From the NCBI RefSeq assembly GCF_007992435.1, contig NZ_BKAG01000016.1, forward strand, positions 89,778 to 153,777: a stretch of DNA of 64,000 bases. The letters are read 5' to 3'. Every line of letters begins with the position of its first letter. The stretch's first letter is position 1. The notes below the pieces were generated by a model that was not told the origin of the DNA, did no database searches, and saw nothing but the letters and a program-made list of their open reading frames with translations. Positions 2 to 17,798 of the stretch are shown here, in pieces. Made by a program: the position numbers and the translations under genes. The DNA is from Prosthecobacter gellanilyticus (lineage in GTDB: Bacteria > Verrucomicrobiota > Verrucomicrobiia > Verrucomicrobiales > Verrucomicrobiaceae).

Positions 2-2473
2 GATGCCGAGGGCGACTGGTCACCGAATGGCACGAAGATGGTCTTCGCGAGCAATCGCCGAGCCTATGACAAGGAGCTCTCGAAAGAGGACAAGGAGCGG
101 CTGAAGATCGACAAGCAGTACTTCATGGACATCTACATCGCCGATGCGGATGGCACGAATGTGAAGCAGCTCACCGATGTGCCGGGCTATGATGGCGGAC
201 CGTTTTTCAGCGCCGATGGCAAGAAGATCTGCTGGCGGCGCTTCACGCCGAAGGGCGATGTGGCCGAGGTGTGGACCATGAACATCGACGGCAGCGACCA
301 GAAGCAGATCACCAAGCTGGGAGCGATGAGCTGGGCGCCGTATTTCCACCCGAGCGGCGAGTATCTCATCTTCACCACGAACCTCAACGGCTTCGCCAAT
401 TTCGAGCTCTACATCGTGGATGCCGCCGGCAAGCGCGAGCCCGTGCGCGTGACCACTACGGATGGTTTTGACGGCCTGCCGGTCTTCACCCCAGATGGCA
501 AGAAACTTGCCTGGACCAGCGGTCGCACCGCAAATGCACAGAGCCAGATCTTCATGGCGGAATGGAATCATGAAGCCGCGAAAAAGGCCCTGGAAACCAG
601 CGGCCCCGCCAAGGAGGACAAGGTCGCCAAGACCGCCCAGGCACCGGACGCAAGCCTAACCAAGGGTGAGATCACTCCGGAGGACATGCGCCAGCATGTG
701 ACGTATCTCGCGAGTGATGAACTGGATGGTCGTCTGACCGGCACGGAAGGCGAGAAACTGGCCACGCAGTATGTGGCAGATGTCTTCAAGAAGATCGGGC
801 TGCAACCCTATGGTGATGAGGAGTGGTTTGAACCCTTTGAGTTCACCGCAGGAGTGGCTTTGGGCGAGGGTAACAAGCTCGTGCTCACCGGTGGTGATGC
901 CGCTGAGCTGAAGGCGGATGTGGACTGGCGCCCGCTGTCGTTTTCCCAGCTCGGTGAGATCAAGCCGAGCAGCATTGTCTTTGCCGGATACGGCATCGAG
1001 ACACCGGATGAAGCCACCGGCAATGATGGCAAGAAACTGGAGACCTACAGCAGCTACGCGCACCTGGATGTTAAGGACAAGTGGGTCATGGTCCTGCGCT
1101 ATCTGCCCGAGGGCATCAGCAAGGAGCGTCGCGATGACCTGGTGCGCTATGCGAGCCTGCGCCACAAGGCGCTGGTGGCCCGGCAGAAGGGCGCGAAAGG
1201 GCTGATCTTTGTCAGCGGGCCTAACAGCAAGGTTGCCAACCAGCTCGTGCCCATGAGCTTCGATGCCTCTCTCGCGACCTCCGGCGTGGCAGCGATCAGC
1301 ATCACCGATGCGCTGGCGGACAAGCTGCTCAAACCGGCCGGCAAGACGATCAAGGAACTCCAGGACAAACTGGACACCGGAGATCTCATGGGCGGTATTG
1401 ACTGCGCAGGACTCACCCTGGCGGCGACGATCGACATCCGTCAGGAAAAGAAGACCGGCCGCAATGTGCTGGGCGTGCTGCCTGCGAAGGACAAGCCTGA
1501 TCCGCATGTGGCGCCGCTCATTGTTTGCGCGCACATCGACCACCTCGGCAGCAAGGGCGGCGGCAACTCACGCGCGAAGGGCGATGACCTGAACAAGATC
1601 CACCACGGCGCGGATGACAACGCCAGCGGTGTGGCCGGTGTGATCGAGATCGCCCAGTATCTGGCGGACCAGAAGAAGCAGGGGAAGATCAAGCTGACGC
1701 GTGATGTGATCTTTGCCGGATGGAGCGGTGAGGAGCTGGGCCTGCTGGGCAGTAATCACTACGTCGAAGCTTTGGCGAAGATGTTCCGCGGCGATCCGAA
1801 CGGCAAGCTGACCGGCATGTTCGCCGCCTGCCTGAACATGGACATGATCGGCCGCTTTCAGAAGACGCTGGTGCTTCAGGGCGTGGGCTCCAGCTCCATC
1901 TGGGCCAAGGAAATCGAGAAGCGCAACGCACCGATCGGCCTGCCGATCACGACGCAGAACGATGCGCACCTGCCGACCGACAGCACCACCTTCTATCTGC
2001 GCGGCATCCCGACGCTGAATGCCTTCACCGGCAGTCATGAAGACTATCATCTGCCGAGCGACACAGCGGACAAGATCGACTACGAGCACGCGGCAAAGAT
2101 CGCGAAACTCATGGGCCTGATCGCCCGCGGTGTGGCGACCTCGGACACGAATCCGGATTATGTGACCATGGAAGCCCCTAAGAACCAAGGCACCCGTGGC
2201 GGCATGCGCGCCTATCTGGGCACCATCCCCGACTATGCGCAGGGTGACACGAAGGGCGTGAAGCTCAGCGGTGTCTCACCCATCGGACCTGCCGCGAAAG
2301 CAGGCGTGAAAGGTGGCGATGTCATCGTGAAGCTCAGCGGCAAGGATGTGCTGAACATCTATGACTACACCAGCCTCATGGGCGAGCTGAAGATCGGCGC
2401 CGAGACGACCATCACCGTGCTGCGTGACGGCAAAGAGGTGGAGCTGAAGGTGACACCGGGGTCTCGCGAATGA
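2..2473 (+). CDS. TolB-like propeller / M28 zinc aminopeptidase / PDZ protein (5' truncated)
   Basis: The reading frame is open from base 2, so the start lies outside the window. The visible 823 residues have three parts. The first 190 or so contain TolB/WD40-like propeller repeats (WSPNGTKMVF, FFSADGKKICW, FHPSGEYLIF, FTPDGKKLAW). The centre is an M28 peptidase, probably with an inserted PA-type lid: HIDHLG, HHGADDNASG, WSGEELGLLGS, NMDMIGR and GSHEDYHLPSD supply the His/Asp/Glu residues expected for two zinc ions. The last 85 or so residues form a PDZ domain (SPIGPAAKAGVKGGDVIVKL). Family knowledge suggests a secreted or periplasmic aminopeptidase; the signal peptide would lie upstream and cannot be seen. 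It converges on the DUF1549 gene, with a hairpin between them. The substrate is unknown. Confidence 0.88.
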   Translation, partial: DAEGDWSPNGTKMVFASNRRAYDKELSKEDKERLKIDKQYFMDIYIADADGTNVKQLTDVPGYDGGPFFSADGKKICWRRFTPKGDVAEVWTMNIDGSDQKQITKLGAMSWAPYFHPSGEYLIFTTNLNGFANFELYIVDAAGKREPVRVTTTDGFDGLPVFTPDGKKLAWTSGRTANAQSQIFMAEWNHEAAKKALETSGPAKEDKVAKTAQAPDASLTKGEITPEDMRQHVTYLASDELDGRLTGTEGEKLATQYVADVFKKIGLQPYGDEEWFEPFEFTAGVALGEGNKLVLTGGDAAELKADVDWRPLSFSQLGEIKPSSIVFAGYGIETPDEATGNDGKKLETYSSYAHLDVKDKWVMVLRYLPEGISKERRDDLVRYASLRHKALVARQKGAKGLIFVSGPNSKVANQLVPMSFDASLATSGVAAISITDALADKLLKPAGKTIKELQDKLDTGDLMGGIDCAGLTLAATIDIRQEKKTGRNVLGVLPAKDKPDPHVAPLIVCAHIDHLGSKGGGNSRAKGDDLNKIHHGADDNASGVAGVIEIAQYLADQKKQGKIKLTRDVIFAGWSGEELGLLGSNHYVEALAKMFRGDPNGKLTGMFAACLNMDMIGRFQKTLVLQGVGSSSIWAKEIEKRNAPIGLPITTQNDAHLPTDSTTFYLRGIPTLNAFTGSHEDYHLPSDTADKIDYEHAAKIAKLMGLIARGVATSDTNPDYVTMEAPKNQGTRGGMRAYLGTIPDYAQGDTKGVKLSGVSPIGPAAKAGVKGGDVIVKLSGKDVLNIYDYTSLMGELKIGAETTITVLRDGKEVELKVTPGSRE

Positions 2474-10740: not shown

Positions 10741-10777
10741 CCAAAAAAAAGAAGGCAGGAGATTTGCATCTCCTGCC
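10741..10777 (-). terminator. Rho-independent terminator of the pilus operon
   Basis: GGCAGGAGAT and ATCTCCTGCC (10754-10777) form a 10-bp stem with a four-base loop. On the minus strand the hairpin is followed by TTC and a run of eight T. It lies 26 bases after the secretin stop codon and directly in front of coaE. Confidence 0.93.
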
Positions 10778-10803
10778 TCCAAGTGAAGCGGTTTTGTCAG
10801 GGA

Positions 10804-13311
10804 TCAGTTACCACCGACGGAAGGCAGCAGCGTTGGATCAGCACCGTCTGTTGGAGCCACCACAGTCGTCTGCTTGATGCGCTGGCCAGCAGGGTCGATG
10901 AGCGTCGCGGTGACGAAGATCATGAGGTTGCGCTTGAAGTGGTCTTCCACTTCGGAGCGGAACAGACGGCCGAGGATCGGCACGTCACCCAGCACGGGGA
11001 GCTTGTCTTCCACGTCCTGCACGTCTTCGCGGATCAGACCACCGAGAGCGACGGTCTGACCGTCCCACACCGTCACCGAGGTCTTCACCTTGCGGGTGGA
11101 GAAGATCGGCTGGTTGATGACGTTCGGCGTCAGTTCCACGCGGGAGGCTGGCTGAAGGATACCACCGATGAAGCTGGCTGGAGTCACGCTGTAGATCGGG
11201 CTGCCGTAGTTCACGAAGCCATCGAATTCGGTGACTTCAGGAAGCAGGTTGAGATCAATCGAACCGTTTTCACCGATGACAGGGTCAACTTCCATGCGAA
11301 CACCCACAGGGCGCATTTCGAAGGCTGTCGGAGTCGTGGGAGTCACAGGAATAGCTGTGGCACCACCACCGTTGATACCACCACCCGTGTTACCGCCGCC
11401 GACGTTGGTCGGGATCTGTGGTGGATCGAACTCCGTTGGATAGATGAATTCGCGAATCACTTCCACGGTGGCCTGTTGACCGCCCTTGGTGGTGACGCTC
11501 GGAGCGCTCATGAGGTCCACGCCCTTCTTCTGAGCCAGCGCACGGATCACAACGCCGAACTGAGGATCGGTGAAGATACCAGCGACGGAGAGGATGCCAG
11601 GAGCGACGGTGTCAGCCGTGGCGTCCACAGGAGTGAACAGGGAGTCGATGCTGTCACCGCGGATGGCACGGGTGCCAGTGCGCAGACCGCGGGTCACAGG
11701 AGACACTGCACCGCCAGTGACCAGATCGGCCACGCTGCCAGAGTAGGTCACACGACCACCCCAGTTACCATTAGTGCCGCCGCCGACGACGACGTTGTCA
11801 GCCGTCATGCCGAGGCCGCCAAGGAGCCAGTCGAAGCCGAGTTCGTCGGTGTTCTTCTGGGTCACTTCCACGAACTTGGTTGTGATGTAGACCTGCTTGG
11901 TGACCTGATCCTGGATGGACTCCACAAAGGACTCCACAAGGTCAAGGTTAGGCTGGGTGTTCTTGACGATGAGCTGGGAGGTCACCTTGTTGAACACAGC
12001 CGTGGCACCTTCAGGGAACGGAATGCCCTGGCCTTTCAAGATGTCGAGAGCACTCTGGCGGCTGATGAGGCCAGAAACACCTGCGGCAGGAGCACCGCCA
12101 GCTGCAAACGGATCGGCAGGAGCTGCAGCAGGGGCGGCATCGCCTGTGCTATTACCCATGGTTCCGAAATCCGGCGGCACTTTGTAGATGCGGGTGAACT
12201 GCTCAGTGGTCGTCTCAGTGACTGGGACGATCAGCACGGCGAAGGGCTCAACCTTGAACTTCATGCCAGCGAGCTCAGTCACGTAACGGAGGGCTTCCGT
12301 CATCGGGACATCCTTCAGGTCGAGGCTGATGGAAGCCGTTGGTGCGTCAGCACCAGCCTTCAAGATGATGTTCACGCCTTTGCGGGCAGGGTCGGTCTCA
12401 AACACGTCCAGATCGCGGCTCTTCACGCGGAGGAACTCCACGGCTTCCTCGATGCTGGCGCCCGAGAACTGAACCTGCGGGAAGACGATCTTCTGCATCT
12501 TCTGGCTCAGATAGACAGTCGGGGCCTTGTTTCCGCCGCCTGAGCTTTCCATCTGCAGGCCCTTGACGGCTGGCTTGTGCTCCCACGCCTCATTCACCAT
12601 GTTCAGCATGCGGGCACGCTGGTGGTCATAAGAGCTCTTGAAATAGTCACCGCGCTTGCGCTCGGCCAGCTCCATGCCACGGCGGGCAGCGGAGTTGTAA
12701 GGGTCGATGCGAAGGACGTCCTCGTAGGTTTCGAGGGCTTTGTCATAGTCACCGATTTCAACGGCGCTAGCGCCGACGAAAAGGCCCTGCTTCACCTTGC
12801 CCACGTTTTCCACGTGCTCAGCGGTGAGAGCTGGCGGCCAGCGATCTGGATCATCCAGCTGGGCGATGAAGATCAGAGCCTTCTTGTGACCAGGGACAGA
12901 GGCCAGAGCCTCGGCCAGCAGTTCACGGGCCTTCACATAGTCGCCCTTGGCAGCCTTCTCACGAGCGACCACGACAGCGCAGTCAGCAAACTTGAGGTTG
13001 GCGAGATCGCGCCAGTCTTGAATGAACGGAGCGTTCGGAAGCTGGTCAAAGATTTCCTTGGCAGCACGATACTGGGCCAAAGCACCCTCATGATCACCCT
13101 GGGCAAAGAGCTCGTCACCACGTTCCATGGCTTTCTGTGCATCCTGGATGCGGGCCAAGCGGCGGGCAATTTCGCGCTCGGCAATGCCAGGGACGCTACC
13201 AGCGCCGGCACCGCCTTCGCCTGCGTAAACGTGCAGGTTCGCCATTGGAAGGGCGGTCGCTGCAACCATCAGTGCAATTGGGTGTTTAGTCATTCGTGAA
13301 ATCTGGGACAT
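10804..13311 (-). CDS. PilQ-like secretin, Amuc_1098-type pilus outer-membrane protein
   Basis: 835 residues. A signal peptide (ALMVAATALPMANLHVYA) precedes a Gly-rich stretch and TPR-like helices (MERGDELFAQGDHEGALAQY; EIGDYDKALETYEDVLRIDP). A secretin N0-like domain follows (SISLDLKDVPMTEALRYVTE), then an N1-type domain. The C-terminal secretin domain ends with the family signature around residues 735-790 (VKTSVTVWDGQTVALGGLI, KLPVLGDVPILGRLFRSE, NLMIFVTATLIDP). Secretins form the outer-membrane gate of type IV pili and type II secretion. The TPR-plus-secretin layout and gene order match Akkermansia Amuc_1098. It is the last gene of the operon, before a terminator. MTKHPIALM, six codons in, is an alternative start. 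Confidence 0.92.
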   Translation of the reverse strand: MSQISRMTKHPIALMVAATALPMANLHVYAGEGGAGAGSVPGIAEREIARRLARIQDAQKAMERGDELFAQGDHEGALAQYRAAKEIFDQLPNAPFIQDWRDLANLKFADCAVVVAREKAAKGDYVKARELLAEALASVPGHKKALIFIAQLDDPDRWPPALTAEHVENVGKVKQGLFVGASAVEIGDYDKALETYEDVLRIDPYNSAARRGMELAERKRGDYFKSSYDHQRARMLNMVNEAWEHKPAVKGLQMESSGGGNKAPTVYLSQKMQKIVFPQVQFSGASIEEAVEFLRVKSRDLDVFETDPARKGVNIILKAGADAPTASISLDLKDVPMTEALRYVTELAGMKFKVEPFAVLIVPVTETTTEQFTRIYKVPPDFGTMGNSTGDAAPAAAPADPFAAGGAPAAGVSGLISRQSALDILKGQGIPFPEGATAVFNKVTSQLIVKNTQPNLDLVESFVESIQDQVTKQVYITTKFVEVTQKNTDELGFDWLLGGLGMTADNVVVGGGTNGNWGGRVTYSGSVADLVTGGAVSPVTRGLRTGTRAIRGDSIDSLFTPVDATADTVAPGILSVAGIFTDPQFGVVIRALAQKKGVDLMSAPSVTTKGGQQATVEVIREFIYPTEFDPPQIPTNVGGGNTGGGINGGGATAIPVTPTTPTAFEMRPVGVRMEVDPVIGENGSIDLNLLPEVTEFDGFVNYGSPIYSVTPASFIGGILQPASRVELTPNVINQPIFSTRKVKTSVTVWDGQTVALGGLIREDVQDVEDKLPVLGDVPILGRLFRSEVEDHFKRNLMIFVTATLIDPAGQRIKQTTVVAPTDGADPTLLPSVGGN

Positions 13312-13407
13312 AAGAGAGGTCAGGAGAGAGAAATTTGGCCGGGAATGGGCGTGTTTATCAGGTTTAAGTGAAATATGGCGAGATGTTTTTTCTCTTTTGG
13401 TGCGTTT

Positions 13408-14379
13408 TTAGCCTTTTTTGACCGTAAGGGGTTCGCCTTTCGTTTGAGTGCCGTCGACAGGGACGATGGTCGCCTGATTTTCTTCGATGGAGAGCACCTT
13501 GAAAGTCACGCCAAGGCCCGGAATCTGGAAGGTTTCACCTTCACGCACCTTGCGCACTTCTGGCGTGCCGATGCGGAACTCGAACTCAGCTTCGTAGTCA
13601 GCCAGATTGGTCTCCTTGCCCTTGATCAAAACGAACTCACGCTTGGTGGAGATGTCCAGGCACTTCAGCTCGGACACGTCAGTCTCCAGACCGGTGGTGG
13701 GGTTCTTATCCGTCTTCTGAGCGAACTCCAGCGCCTTGAAGCGGGCAGGACCTGTCCTGTCGAAGCCGAACTCATCACCAGGAGAGACGAACTTGCTGGC
13801 CTTGGGATCAGGCTTCATGCGCTGCACCTGGTAGGGCGGCGAGCTGCTGTTCAGCTTGATGATGTAGTCATGCGTGATGCGTGACTTCAGGAAGAGCTTC
13901 TGCGTCACCGGTGGGTGAGAGGCGGCATCACGCGGATCGGTCTTTTGCTCGAACTCCTCCAGATTGTTAAAGCCGTCATTGTCCGGGTCAAGATCGCCGA
14001 TGTTGGGGGACTCGATGCTCGGCAGGTCATTCTTCACCAGGTACTCGTTCGTCATGGGCGGACGAAGCACCGGATCAGCCACCTGCAGGTCGAAGAGCTG
14101 GTCACCCTTTTGCAGCAACAGCACCGACTTGTTCAGGGGCACTGGCTTGCCGTTGATGACAGGGGAAACCCAGGTGACCTTTTCCTGCAAGCGCTGGAGG
14201 ATCATCTTCACGCCGTCCGTGGGAGGCGGGTTCATGTTGCTCTTGGGCGCCACGGTCTTGAGAGCCAGCCGGTCAGACAGGCTCTGGCTGTCATAGATCG
14301 TGTAACCCACGGCGCCAAACGCCAGCAACGCCGCCAGGATCAGGATCGTTTTTTCGTAATTGCCGTTCTTTTTCTGCAT
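13408..14379 (-). CDS. Amuc_1099-type pilus-like protein (PilP position)
   Basis: 323 residues. One N-terminal membrane helix (TILILAALLAFGAVGYTIY) is followed by a periplasmic domain. DLDPDNDGFNNLEEFEQK is a thrombospondin-type-3/EF-hand-like calcium motif. The C-terminal 60 residues (VREGETFQIPGLGVTFKVL) look like a small beta domain. Placement between the Amuc_1100-like gene and the secretin equals Amuc_1099 in Akkermansia. It is also the place of pilP in the pilMNOPQ operon, so a role linking the inner-membrane complex to the secretin is likely (inference). A 96-base gap separates it from the secretin start. Confidence 0.8.
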   Translation of the reverse strand: MQKKNGNYEKTILILAALLAFGAVGYTIYDSQSLSDRLALKTVAPKSNMNPPPTDGVKMILQRLQEKVTWVSPVINGKPVPLNKSVLLLQKGDQLFDLQVADPVLRPPMTNEYLVKNDLPSIESPNIGDLDPDNDGFNNLEEFEQKTDPRDAASHPPVTQKLFLKSRITHDYIIKLNSSSPPYQVQRMKPDPKASKFVSPGDEFGFDRTGPARFKALEFAQKTDKNPTTGLETDVSELKCLDISTKREFVLIKGKETNLADYEAEFEFRIGTPEVRKVREGETFQIPGLGVTFKVLSIEENQATIVPVDGTQTKGEPLTVKKG

Positions 14380-14407
14380 GGTCTGGAAAGGGGGGAAGAG
14401 TTCAGAC

Positions 14408-15394
14408 TCAGTGACCGGCTGCAGCGGTCTGCGGGTTCAGGAATTTGACGAGATCAATCTCGATGTAAGCGCGGAGAGTCTCACGACCCAGCACCACCAT
14501 GGAGTCAACAGGAGCCGGCTGGATGCCTACAGGAGCAGGCTTCGCAGCAGCGCCGTCAGCACCAGGGGCGGGAGCTGCACCTTCCTCAGGCGCAGCGGCG
14601 GGTGTCAGGGCTGTCCGCACCGGGCCTACCTGCACTTCATTCTCGATGCGCACCAGACGGGCCACCGTGAAGAAGGGCATGTCAGAAGGGCTGGTCAGAC
14701 CGCTGAGCAGAGCCTGGAGACCAGCCTGATCTGTGCGGACGGTGAGACGGACCTGACGACGCTCCGTGATGCTCACGGGAGCTGCGGCAGCTTGTCTCTG
14801 CTGGCCTTTGGCATTGCCTTTGGGCCTGGCAGCCGGCTGCGGCCTTGCGGGTTGATCACCCTTCTCGGAGGCCAGCAACGAGCGATCCAGCATGTCCACC
14901 GTGCGGATGCCGCTCTTCAGCGCCAGACGGACGATGGAGTCCACGGAATCCAGGTAGGTGGAGAGCTCTGCGGCGACCTGGTCATTCTTTGGCAGTTCGC
15001 TGGTATATTGATCAAAGCCGAGATTGAACTCAGCGGGAAGATGCCCGGAGCCATCTTTCTTGATCTCAGCCACCTTGGTCTTCAGCTTGGCTTGAAAATC
15101 GGTGTTGGTTGTCGGCTTGTCATCAGGCTGCAATTTATACAGCACCAAGGAAAGCTGGCCGACAGCCTTTTCATAATCACCCACCAATGCCTGTTTCTGG
15201 GCCAGATTTTCCGGCGTGGGAGCCAGGCTGGCGCTCTTCAGGTTGGCAAGGCTTGTGTTGACGGAGTCAAACTGCTCCTGGGAGGCAGAAGCTGCCGACC
15301 AGGTGTTGAAAAGAACGACGCCGAGTCCCACCACTCCGGCCCCTGTGAGGCCGAGGATGGCGGCTGGCACTTTGTTGTCTTGGATCCAGCTCAT
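14408..15394 (-). CDS. Amuc_1100-type pilus-like protein (PilO position)
   Basis: 328 residues. It begins MSWIQDNKVPAAILGLTGAG, like the Amuc_1100 start, and has a single N-terminal membrane helix. A coiled-coil region (QEQFDSVNTSLANLK) is followed by two ferredoxin-like-sized domains (FNLGFDQYTSELPKNDQVAA; VSITERRQVRLTVRTDQAGL) and an Ala/Pro-rich linker before the final strand (RETLRAYIEIDLVKFLNP). Akkermansia Amuc_1100 is 317 residues and is known as a host-signalling outer-surface protein; its fold has been compared with PilO/GspM-type proteins. Here it is in an apparently non-gut relative, so a structural pilus-complex role is more basic (inference). Four bases separate it from the upstream pilM-pilN gene. 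Confidence 0.85.
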   Translation of the reverse strand: MSWIQDNKVPAAILGLTGAGVVGLGVVLFNTWSAASASQEQFDSVNTSLANLKSASLAPTPENLAQKQALVGDYEKAVGQLSLVLYKLQPDDKPTTNTDFQAKLKTKVAEIKKDGSGHLPAEFNLGFDQYTSELPKNDQVAAELSTYLDSVDSIVRLALKSGIRTVDMLDRSLLASEKGDQPARPQPAARPKGNAKGQQRQAAAAPVSITERRQVRLTVRTDQAGLQALLSGLTSPSDMPFFTVARLVRIENEVQVGPVRTALTPAAAPEEGAAPAPGADGAAAKPAPVGIQPAPVDSMVVLGRETLRAYIEIDLVKFLNPQTAAAGH

Positions 15395-15398
15395 TAGG

Positions 15399-17132
15399 TC
15401 AATCTCTGAATTTCATGGGCTGCTTGAGGGGCAGCGTGATGTTGAAAGTGTAGGCGTAACGGTCTTCCTCAATACCGCTCTGAGCACTGACGTACTCAGC
15501 GTTCTTGGCCTCGAAGTTCTCGATCGCAAACCAGGGCAGTTTGGCGAGGGCGGCCGCGTATTTGTACACGATCTGCTCACCCTGGTCGTTTTTGCGATAC
15601 AGTCCCTGGATCTTGATGGAATAGACCGGCTCGGTTCCTGCCGCCGCCTCGTCCTTCTTCTCGGACTTGGCCTCCTGTCCCACCAAGGAAGGTGTGATGG
15701 ACTGGCCATTCTTGAGTGGCTCGACGACTGTCAGCCAGATCATGTCGTTTTCGAACACCCTGTTGAGGTCGGTCAAAAGACGAACCCAATAGGAGCGCTC
15801 TGCCACGGCCTGCTCAAGCTGGGAGCTGAGAGCCGCATACTGAGTCTGTTTGGCATCCAGCGCAGCGATCTGGGAACCGATGCCTTGCAGCTTCTGGTTC
15901 TCCACATTCATCGTGGCCAGGCGTTCCTGGATGACACGATCCGTGTTTTGATAGTAGACAATGCCAGCGCCAAGAGCACCCCAGGCAACCAAGGCGGCGA
16001 GCAGCAGCGCCGGTGTCCGGCGGGCGGCATCACGGGCATTGGCCACGGGTGTGGGGACGAGTTCCACCTCACTCGGCGAGCCGCCGGAGGAGCGGAGGGC
16101 CAGACCCACAAGTTCACCCAGGAAGGGGGAGTCAGCATGGGCGACGTCAGACTTCAGGCTGCGATCCACCTGCACGCCGCGAAGAGGATTGAAGATCTCG
16201 ACCGGAGTCTTGAGCTTCTCTTCGAGGAAGGAGGCCATGTTGCCGAGCAGCGCACCACCACCGGTGATGAAAACACGCTTTGGCTGGGAACCGCCCTGCT
16301 GGCTGCGGTAGGCCGTGATACGGCGCATGACCTGCGTGTGCAGATTGCTCGCGGCATTGCGGATGACCTTGGAAAGCGCGGCGATCTCTGGATCAGCATG
16401 ATCCTGGACAGCCCCGCCAGGAGCCACGAAGCCGCGAGCGCATTTCTGTGCCTCGGCATCGCTGAAGCTGATGTTGAACTCCTTGGAAACCGCAGAGGTG
16501 ATGGAAGCTCCACCCACCAGGAAGTTGGCGATGAAGAAGCGGCCCTGCTCCACGAAAACGAGGTTGGTCGAACGAGCGCCGAGATCGATCAGCACGGCGG
16601 GCTCATCAACATCCGGATAGCTGTAGCGGAAGGCATTGTAGAGGGCGAGCGGAGCCACATCCACACCGCTGGTGGAGACCTTGGCGGACACCACCTGCTC
16701 ATGGATTTCATTCAAGGCATCCGACTTCATGGCCACGATGACCACTTCCGTCTCACCGCTGCCTTCGCTGGCAAATTCATAATCCCAGACCACTTCATTG
16801 ATCGGGAATGGCACGTTCTGGCGGGCCTCGAACTCGACGATCTGCGCCACGCGATCTCCCTGCACGGGAGGCAGTTTCACGAAGCGGTTGAAGACCGTAT
16901 GACCGGCCACGGAGAACCAGACGGCGGAATTTTTGATCTTGAGACGTTCCACCAGCTCCTGAAGTCCGATCTTGAGCTGAGGAATGCGGGTGGCGTCCAC
17001 AGTGGGATCCCCCGGCATGTCCACGAACTCATAACGCTTCAAAACGAGGTCGCCCCCGGATCGGGAAAAAATGGCTCCTGAGAGACGCTGGGAACCCAGG
17101 TTCAGGACCGCGATGCTTTTGCTGTCTGCCAT
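15399..17132 (-). CDS. pilM: PilM-PilN fusion protein of the pilus inner-membrane complex
   Basis: 577 residues. Residues 1-345 are a PilM/FtsA-like actin fold: SIAVLNLGSQRLSGAIF, IKNSAVWFSVAGHTVFNRFV, VEFEARQNVPFPINEVVWDY, AVLIDLGARSTNLVFVE and RVFITGGGALLGNMASFL. Then comes a membrane helix near 373-392 (LLLAALVAWGALGAGIVYY), a coiled coil, and a PilN-like periplasmic region (SYWVRLLTDLNRVFENDMIW). Canonical systems encode PilM (about 350 residues) and PilN (about 200) separately; here they are one chain. The gene lies between the Amuc_1102-like and Amuc_1100-like genes, as Amuc_1101 does. PilM normally binds the cytoplasmic tail of PilN. Confidence 0.88.
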   Translation of the reverse strand: MADSKSIAVLNLGSQRLSGAIFSRSGGDLVLKRYEFVDMPGDPTVDATRIPQLKIGLQELVERLKIKNSAVWFSVAGHTVFNRFVKLPPVQGDRVAQIVEFEARQNVPFPINEVVWDYEFASEGSGETEVVIVAMKSDALNEIHEQVVSAKVSTSGVDVAPLALYNAFRYSYPDVDEPAVLIDLGARSTNLVFVEQGRFFIANFLVGGASITSAVSKEFNISFSDAEAQKCARGFVAPGGAVQDHADPEIAALSKVIRNAASNLHTQVMRRITAYRSQQGGSQPKRVFITGGGALLGNMASFLEEKLKTPVEIFNPLRGVQVDRSLKSDVAHADSPFLGELVGLALRSSGGSPSEVELVPTPVANARDAARRTPALLLAALVAWGALGAGIVYYQNTDRVIQERLATMNVENQKLQGIGSQIAALDAKQTQYAALSSQLEQAVAERSYWVRLLTDLNRVFENDMIWLTVVEPLKNGQSITPSLVGQEAKSEKKDEAAAGTEPVYSIKIQGLYRKNDQGEQIVYKYAAALAKLPWFAIENFEAKNAEYVSAQSGIEEDRYAYTFNITLPLKQPMKFRD

Positions 17133-17183
17133 GCTAAAAAGTGGGTTGAGGCCTTGCTTGGAAGTGAATCCGGCCGCTCCTGA

Positions 17184-17798
17184 TTACTTGGACTTGGTGG
17201 GAAGGTCGTAGTCACCCCACAGAATATCAAAGGGGGTCTCCTTGCGAGGAAGCACCACATTTTCAGTGGCCTCAAAGGCGTCGGTCTTCTCCCACCATTT
17301 GCCAGGAATGGAGGTCTCACCTCCCACCACCTGACCATCCACCACGATTTCAATGGCAGAGGCCTTCACATCAGAAGCTGCCGTGAACTGGTCCTTTTCC
17401 AGGATGCGGCGCAGCGTGGAAGGAGTGATGTAGGCCAGCGCATGGCAGCGCTCACCCGCAGGCACATCCACATAGTTGATCGTTCCCTTGAGAAGGTGGT
17501 ACTTGTTGTCCTTCGTCTGGGCATTCAGGGCGACATAATAATTGACCGTCATGGAGGACAGGCTGCCATTACGTCCGCCAGCTGCTGGAGGAAGGGTGAT
17601 CTGCAGTTCCGTGTCAAACTCCAGCCATTCTTTCGGACGCCAGTTCCTGTTCGGCGTGTTGCCAGCCTGGAACTGAGGTGTCTGGATGTTGATCACCTTG
17701 GGGGCGCTCACCTTGACTTTGACAGCAGGTGCGGTTTGGGCCTGCAAACCAGACAGCCCAAGAGAAAGGGCCGCGAGAACGAGGATGGATGACTTCAT
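17184..17798 (-). CDS. Amuc_1102-type secreted pilus-like protein
   Basis: 204 residues. A clear signal peptide (ILVLAALSLGLSGLQAQ) is followed by a mostly beta-strand domain (VINIQTPQFQAGNTPNRNW; YYVALNAQTKDNKYHLLKG; AIEIVVDGQVVGGETSIP) ending FDILWGDYDLPTKSK. The position first in the operon, 51 bases before pilM, equals Amuc_1102. No prepilin peptidase motif or hydrophobic pilin helix is visible, so it is unlikely to be a pilin. Function is unknown; family assignment rests on size, fold class and gene order. Confidence 0.75.
   Translation of the reverse strand: MKSSILVLAALSLGLSGLQAQTAPAVKVKVSAPKVINIQTPQFQAGNTPNRNWRPKEWLEFDTELQITLPPAAGGRNGSLSSMTVNYYVALNAQTKDNKYHLLKGTINYVDVPAGERCHALAYITPSTLRRILEKDQFTAASDVKASAIEIVVDGQVVGGETSIPGKWWEKTDAFEATENVVLPRKETPFDILWGDYDLPTKSK

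What the first reader, a model, noticed from the sequence alone, without database searches (positions are those of the whole stretch)
10804..17798. An Amuc_1098-1102 block that also reads as pilM-N-O-P-Q, with PilM and PilN fused
Seen: five minus-strand genes with small gaps, ending in a strong terminator. The products are a secreted beta protein, a 577-residue PilM actin-like domain continuing into a PilN-like helix and coiled coil, a one-helix protein starting like Amuc_1100, a one-helix protein with a calcium-type motif, and a TPR-secretin. Known: Akkermansia Amuc_1098 to Amuc_1102 have this composition and order, and Amuc_1100 is a host-signalling protein. Inference: the block is a diverged pilMNOPQ alignment complex in which Amuc_1100 is the PilO counterpart and Amuc_1099 the PilP counterpart. 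The immune-active protein would then be an ancestral pilus part kept in verrucomicrobia without an animal host.
Basis: partly seen in the sequence, partly recalled or inferred. Interest (0 to 1): 0.75.

Follow-up and report, generated by a model that had tools for sequence, protein, structure and literature searches.

The report
Pilus alignment scaffold with Amuc_1100 relative
Five neighbouring genes in this relative of the gut bacterium Akkermansia match the five known Akkermansia genes that include the host-signalling protein Amuc_1100, and they likely build the scaffold that guides a type IV pilus through the cell envelope, which would make Amuc_1100 an old pilus part rather than something evolved for an animal host.

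The parts
17184..17798 (-). Amuc_1102 counterpart, probably secreted beta protein, 204 aa, first gene; no pilMNOPQ counterpart
   Evidence: NF042424 173.3 bits; solved Amuc_1102 7dsz E 3.4e-17 alone, E 1.3e-46 with the family profile
15399..17132 (-). Amuc_1101 counterpart, PilM joined to a PilN-type tail, 577 aa
   Evidence: NF045709 759.2 bits, TIGR01175 139.3 bits; family profile hits PilM 3jc8_Ma E 1.1e-71 at 1-351 and PilN 3jc8_Na E 9.9e-11 at 355-484
16053..16067 (-). PilN-type docking motif V356-E-L-V-P360, right after the PilM domain
   Evidence: L358 and P360 invariant in 41 aligned proteins; lines up with INLLP of Myxococcus PilN
15951..16016 (-). single membrane helix of the PilN part, about residues 373-394
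   Evidence: hydropathy scan
14408..15394 (-). Amuc_1100 counterpart, PilO-type protein, 328 aa
14441..14983 (-). predicted alpha-beta-beta-alpha-beta-beta (ferredoxin-like) domain, residues 138-318
   Evidence: secondary structure of the model
13408..14379 (-). Amuc_1099 counterpart, PilP-type protein by predicted fold, 323 aa
13954..13989 (-). calcium-type loop D131-x-D-x-D-G...E142
   Evidence: invariant in A2, 78 sequences; full pattern in 127 of 148 surveyed members, no form of it in 14; metal binding itself not tested
13411..13899 (-). PilP-like beta region, residues 161-323, with about 95 residues beyond the PilP core
   Evidence: VIA alignment range 161..323 with 65-68 residues aligned
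10804..13311 (-). Amuc_1098 counterpart, TPR-secretin (PilQ counterpart), 835 aa
   Evidence: NF042912 1024.7 bits; TIGR02515 PilQ 118.7 and TIGR02517 GspD 150.6, both under their cut-offs
10751..10780 (-). intrinsic terminator closing the block
   Evidence: 13-pair stem, 4-base loop, T run

Best explanation
The block likely encodes the alignment complex of a type IV pilus, that is the scaffold predicted to join the motor at the inner membrane to the secretin pore in the outer membrane. Shown by sequence: all five genes belong to the Amuc_1098-1102 families, the 577-aa protein is a PilM domain continuing into a PilN-type tail, and the last gene is a TPR-secretin. Shown by prediction only: the Amuc_1100-like protein has the PilO fold and the Amuc_1099-like protein the PilP fold. 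Inferred mechanism: the PilM part sits in the cytoplasm next to PilB/PilC, its own covalently attached PilN tail crosses the inner membrane, the PilN part pairs in the periplasm with the Amuc_1100-like protein as PilN pairs with PilO, the Amuc_1099-like protein reaches from that pair to the secretin as PilP does, and the pilus built by PilB/PilC from a pilin coded elsewhere passes through the secretin. The calcium-type loop of the Amuc_1099-like protein may set the geometry of that bridge (untested). The Amuc_1102-like protein would be an added secreted part. On this reading Amuc_1100 is held by an inner-membrane helix and lies in the periplasm, and its effect on host cells would come from released protein.
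Confidence: 0.8

Rival explanations
1. The block is a type II secretion-like system rather than a pilus machine: the same folds occur as GspL (PilM-N like), GspM (PilO like), GspC (PilP like) and GspD.
For: The secretin scores higher with GspD than with PilQ (150.6 against 118.7 bits, both under cut-off); PF05134 T2SSL is matched at E up to 1 by 11 of 41 Amuc_1101 proteins; PulL/PulM is the next pilus-type structural match after PilO; a GspM-type protein on contig 28 weakly matches the Amuc_1100 model (E 0.009).
Against: The 577-aa protein passes the PilM subfamily cut-off and its tail finds PilN; PilO and PilP, not GspM or GspC, lead the structure lists; the window's genome has a separate T2SS-like set; PilT-family ATPases, marks of a retractile pilus, are over cut-off in 275 of 288 genomes of the phylum.
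Confidence: 0.1
2. The block is a glycan-binding attachment and uptake device (mucin utilisation locus 2) in which Amuc_1102 is the working filament, and the pilus-like parts are borrowed.
For: PMC13174399 (first of two parts of the text read; passages) proposes a type IV-like pilus attaching to fucose-rich glycans, with Amuc_1102 similar to an archaeal type IV pilin.
Against: Not exclusive of the alignment-complex reading; here the Amuc_1102 family finds only its own solved structure, and no Amuc_1102 relative was found in 15 of 80 unnamed-genome loci, some of them cut by contig ends and some perhaps missed by the profile.
Confidence: 0.25
3. Only PilM, PilN and the secretin are true relatives; the Amuc_1099- and Amuc_1100-like proteins reached similar small folds by convergence.
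For: No sequence profile for PilP and a weak one for PilO; ferredoxin-like and small beta folds are common (recalled).
Against: Both proteins sit in the pilO and pilP positions and each has the right family at the top of its structure list once Amuc_1100 itself is set aside.
Confidence: 0.12

Closest known systems
Amuc_1098 to Amuc_1102 cluster of Akkermansia muciniphila (MUL2 locus; NCBIfam NF042912, NF042425, NF038287, NF045709, NF042424)
   Same: All five families over cut-off, same order, same strand
   Different: Host is a Prosthecobacter-like bacterium (nearest named proteins); 20-24 % identity to Amuc_1100 over the structure alignment
Type IVa pilus alignment subcomplex PilM-PilN-PilO-PilP-PilQ (Pseudomonas, Myxococcus, Thermus)
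   Same: Order, one-helix membrane proteins, PilM domain, PilN motif, predicted PilO and PilP folds, secretin last
   Different: PilM and PilN are one chain; PilO and PilP counterparts are 323-328 aa; calcium-type loop in the PilP counterpart; TPR repeats on the secretin; an extra first gene; the PilN, PilO, PilP and PilQ family models are not passed
Type II secretion GspL-GspM-GspC-GspD
   Same: Related folds and architecture
   Different: A separate T2SS-like set stands on contig 28 of the same genome; weaker matches than the pilus proteins except for the secretin

Membership tests
Amuc_1098-1102 families (NCBIfam) | each protein over the curated cut-off of its equivalog model, in cluster order | tested here: met
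   five of five; order
PilM | actin-like PilM domain over the family cut-off | tested here: met
   TIGR01175 139.3 bits against 133; PF11104 107.5 against 27
PilN | N-terminal docking motif, one membrane helix, coiled coil, homologous to PilN | tested here: met
   profile E 5.5e-7 to 3jc8_Na over positions 3-131 of the tail; helix
PilN | PF05137 over its cut-off in the window protein | tested here: not met
   no PF05137 hit for the window protein; 5 of 41 relatives match at E up to 1; hence called a PilN-type tail, not a PF05137 member
PilN | ferredoxin-like periplasmic domain | not tested
PilO | one membrane helix, coiled coil, ferredoxin-like PilO core | tested here: met
PilO | PF04350 over its cut-off | tested here: not met
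   0 families for the window protein, PF04350 in 2 of 76 members at best E 0.027; hence a PilO counterpart by fold, not a PF04350 member
PilP | PilP beta-sandwich | tested here: met
PilP | PF04351 over its cut-off | tested here: not met
   PF04351 is not among the 24 families found for 78 members; hence a PilP counterpart by fold only. The model rings in 0 of 14 control genomes
PilP | lipoprotein anchor (recalled for proteobacterial PilP) | tested here: inconclusive
   a membrane helix is predicted near the N-terminus; no lipobox search was run
PilQ | secretin domain, gene at the end of the block | tested here: met
   PF00263 116.5 bits; last gene
PilQ | TIGR02515 cut-off | tested here: not met
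   118.7 against 284.35; hence a PilQ counterpart by place and domain
Type IVa pilus machine | complex formation and a pilus made | not testable with these tools
   no complex prediction or experiment available

The most novel reading that the evidence does not exclude
Amuc_1100, treated as an outer-membrane surface protein, is the PilO of a phylum-wide pilus scaffold: it is inner-membrane anchored and periplasmic, paired with the PilN half of a PilM-PilN fusion and linked by a calcium-braced double-module PilP to a TPR-secretin, and its immune activity comes from shed machine parts. In this lineage the classical separate PilN, PilO and PilP are gone and this is the only alignment complex that Akkermansia has.
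Probability: 0.5. Interest if true: 0.7.

Novelty: new variant of a known kind. Interest (0 to 1): 0.55.

Why it matters
Amuc_1100 is studied as a therapeutic protein, yet its job in the bacterium is unsettled and papers describe it as an outer-membrane or pili-like protein. If it is PilO, its cellular place (inner membrane, periplasm), its partners and the phenotype of its deletion become direct predictions, and relatives outside the genus Akkermansia, such as the one in this window, become models for it. It also gives a case in which two partners of the pilus machine, known (recalled) to dock through a short motif, have been fused while the motif stayed.

Tried and rejected
Single-sequence search of the Amuc_1100-like protein against the PDB found nothing useful; the family profile was needed. 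Foldseek with the Amuc_1099 model gave no match under E 0.001 and unrelated top rows; the second-look aligner was needed, and it only re-aligns Foldseek's own 1000 best, so families missing from it (GspC among them) are not excluded.

Profile-profile comparison with 11 PilO-family proteins from Verrucomicrobiota (11 of the 16 readable among 30 loci; their profile does find PilO in the PDB, E 2.5e-10, but some may be GspM) was weak; the Amuc_1100 family against the Amuc_1101 tail gave a 20-column match only; Amuc_1099 against Amuc_1100 matched only in the membrane helix. Halves of the Amuc_1099 beta region against each other gave E 0.0021, probability 13 %: a hint of two PilP-like modules, not more. 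The one PilP hit of the phylum (L249, under cut-off) lies in a separate stretch with a PilC-like and a secretin-like frame (read by eye) and did not help.

Reading the block as an FtsA-type division protein (the old annotation of Amuc_1101, PMC5332112) was rejected: PF14450 43.2 bits against PilM 107.5.

Co-occurrence with PilT: 218 of 275 PilT-positive and 5 of 13 PilT-negative genomes match the Amuc_1100 family, Fisher p 0.0022, but the 8 double negatives fall in two families, so this is not independent evidence. The regular expression for the PilN motif in 149 of 154 proteins is loose and counted for little. A homologue search with E. coli HofO returned 90 proteins, by their names and identities HofO itself.

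Gene-order counts are from loci chosen because they match: 80 picked by hand over many genera from the genomes, none weaker than E 2.4e-13, and the best 80 of 583 loci. In the first set 61 loci hold four further block genes, 16 three and 3 two. Rows outside the canonical count include contig ends, ORF-calling overlaps, and 15 of 80 loci without a found Amuc_1102. With gaps of at most 350 bases the counts are 58 of 80 and 58 of 80. coaE and rho follow the block in 37 of 47 named loci with enough sequence, but coaE in 5 and rho in 4 of 21 unnamed ones. Script one search stopped with an error and gave nothing used.

Full report
What is there. Five minus-strand ORFs between 10804 and 17798 match, each over its curated cut-off, the five NCBIfam families named after Amuc_1098, 1099, 1100, 1101 and 1102. 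The block ends in a 13-pair terminator and is followed by coaE and rho. The nearest named proteins belong to Prosthecobacter; the habitat of this genome is not shown by any search.

PilM and PilN in one chain. The 577-aa protein passes the PilM subfamily model. A profile of the window protein and 40 of the 78 other family members found finds PilM chains at positions 1-351 (3jc8_Ma E 1.1e-71; 2ych, 7-351, E 2.1e-51) and Myxococcus PilN at 355-484 (E 9.9e-11) in the same search. The tail alone (38 sequences) still finds PilN first, E 5.5e-7, with the next chain at 0.064. The match starts at the docking motif (V-E-L-V-P here, I-N-L-L-P in PilN; that this motif docks PilN on PilM in other bacteria is recalled knowledge), runs through the membrane helix at about 373-394 and into the following coiled region. 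So the motif survives right behind the domain that it would dock to. Against: Pfam's PilN model does not hit the window protein and hits 5 of 41 family members at E up to 1.

The secretin. It passes the Amuc_1098 model (1024.7 bits) but not PilQ (118.7 of 284.35) or GspD (150.6 of 351.35). In A. muciniphila the protein was located in the outer membrane by immunogold and named PilQ (PMC4960237, passages).

Amuc_1102. Its only solved relative is Amuc_1102 itself (7dsz). PMC13174399 (first of two parts of the text read; passages) calls it similar to an archaeal type IV pilin. It has no place in pilMNOPQ.

Spread and order. The Amuc_1100 family matches in 223 of 288 genomes drawn over the phylum, 30 of them over the model's cut-off; the control rang once under cut-off in B. 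subtilis, so the weakest matches may be false. In 80 of these genomes, chosen by hand and none weaker than E 2.4e-13, each hit has at least two further block genes beside it. All five genes lie in this order on one strand in 61 of 80 unnamed-genome loci and 63 of 80 named loci; many exceptions are contig ends. PMC13174399 already reports the conserved synteny in Akkermansiaceae and often in Verrucomicrobiales. That the block is kept outside the genus Akkermansia is thus both shown here and in print; that it is ancestral to the phylum is inferred from the spread, no tree was made.

What else is in the genomes. The window's genome has 10 secretin matches and 14 T2SSE ATPase matches, 13 of these over cut-off, a PilT/PilU pair over cut-off, and on contig 28 a tandem PilB/GspE-type pair, a PilC/GspF-type protein and a pilin-like gene (ATPases and PilC under the NCBIfam cut-offs), a protein with the only PF05137 match (GspL-type by place), a weak GspM match (20.3 bits of 60) and a secretin. 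It has no PF04350 or PF04351 match. Genus g5 of the survey is Akkermansia: G113 encodes an Amuc_1100 identical to the solved A. muciniphila protein over 287 residues. Eight g5 genomes are simpler: two secretins each, the second being an Amuc_1098-family paralogue in the two that I scanned, a PilB/GspE-type pair and a PilT-type pair, PF05137 0 of 8, none among the 35 genomes with PF04350. In the one locus read in full (L269) pilB1-pilB2-pilC-pilin stand without a secretin or any frame that I recognised as GspL or GspM beside them; these genes are the best matches of contig 28's. So in Akkermansia the Amuc block is the only alignment complex that these models can see. The models ring in 2, 2 and 0 of 14 control genomes and also miss most of the block's own proteins, so a second diverged set is not excluded.

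How it would work. See the best explanation. Steps shown: families, order, PilM-PilN fusion, presence of PilB-, PilC- and PilT-type genes and a pilin-like gene in the genomes. Steps predicted: PilO and PilP folds. Steps inferred: pairing of the PilN tail with Amuc_1100, the bridge to the secretin, use by PilB/PilC, a role for calcium, the place of Amuc_1102.

A conflict worth testing. Amuc_1100 was reported on the outside of A. muciniphila by immunofluorescence on fixed cells, with cell-to-cell variation (PMC5332112, passages). PilO is held in the inner membrane (recalled knowledge). Leakage through fixed envelopes or shed complexes could reconcile the two (inference). In the same paper all proteins of the cluster were at least ten times more abundant in one fraction than in the other, as a joined machine would be.

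Novelty. In the held library I found no paper that calls Amuc_1099 PilP or Amuc_1101 a PilM-PilN fusion (searches; mostly listings seen, passages of seven papers). One 2020 crystal-structure paper on Amuc_1100 is not held; the other and the 2023 mucin-locus paper I know only as citations and did not look up, so either statement may exist there. I rate this a new variant of a known kind.

Noticed in passing
L204:10845-12464 (Rubritalea marina): One 539-aa frame joins the start of the Amuc_1100 counterpart to the second half of the secretin, with Amuc_1099 not found; a real deletion or an assembly misjoin.
   Followed up: partly
L077, L103, L127: Tandem second copy of the Amuc_1098-type secretin at the end of the block.
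   Followed up: no
L098:4907-6307, L108:5209-6570: In one lineage (family f24) the fused protein is 453-466 aa: the actin-like PilM part seems to lack a stretch, the PilN part with IDLIP / IDLVP motif is kept.
   Followed up: partly
L047 (G000 contig 7), L267, L270: A second, unlinked Amuc_1098-family secretin in the window's genome and in two Akkermansia genomes, partner unknown.
   Followed up: partly
G000 whole genome: Ten secretin-domain and fourteen T2SSE-type matches in one 7.6 Mb genome, with at least two stretches that look T2SS-like by gene content (contigs 28 and 2).
   Followed up: partly
genus g5 (Akkermansia) genomes: Every genome of this genus in the sample matches the Amuc_1100 family, some much diverged (E 1e-21 to 1e-33), whereas PMC6828834 reports it absent from A. 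glycaniphila and PMC9415379 reports it produced there (passages).
   Followed up: partly
members L097, L100, L105, L106, L109, L114, L115, L116, L117, L120, L134, L136 of the Amuc_1099 family: These twelve relatives of the same class or nearby lack the calcium-type loop; what replaces it was not looked at.
   Followed up: no
G116, G136, G204, G207, G280: Five genomes match the Amuc_1100 family but have no PilT over cut-off: possibly a pilus without retraction, weak false matches, or incomplete assemblies.
   Followed up: no
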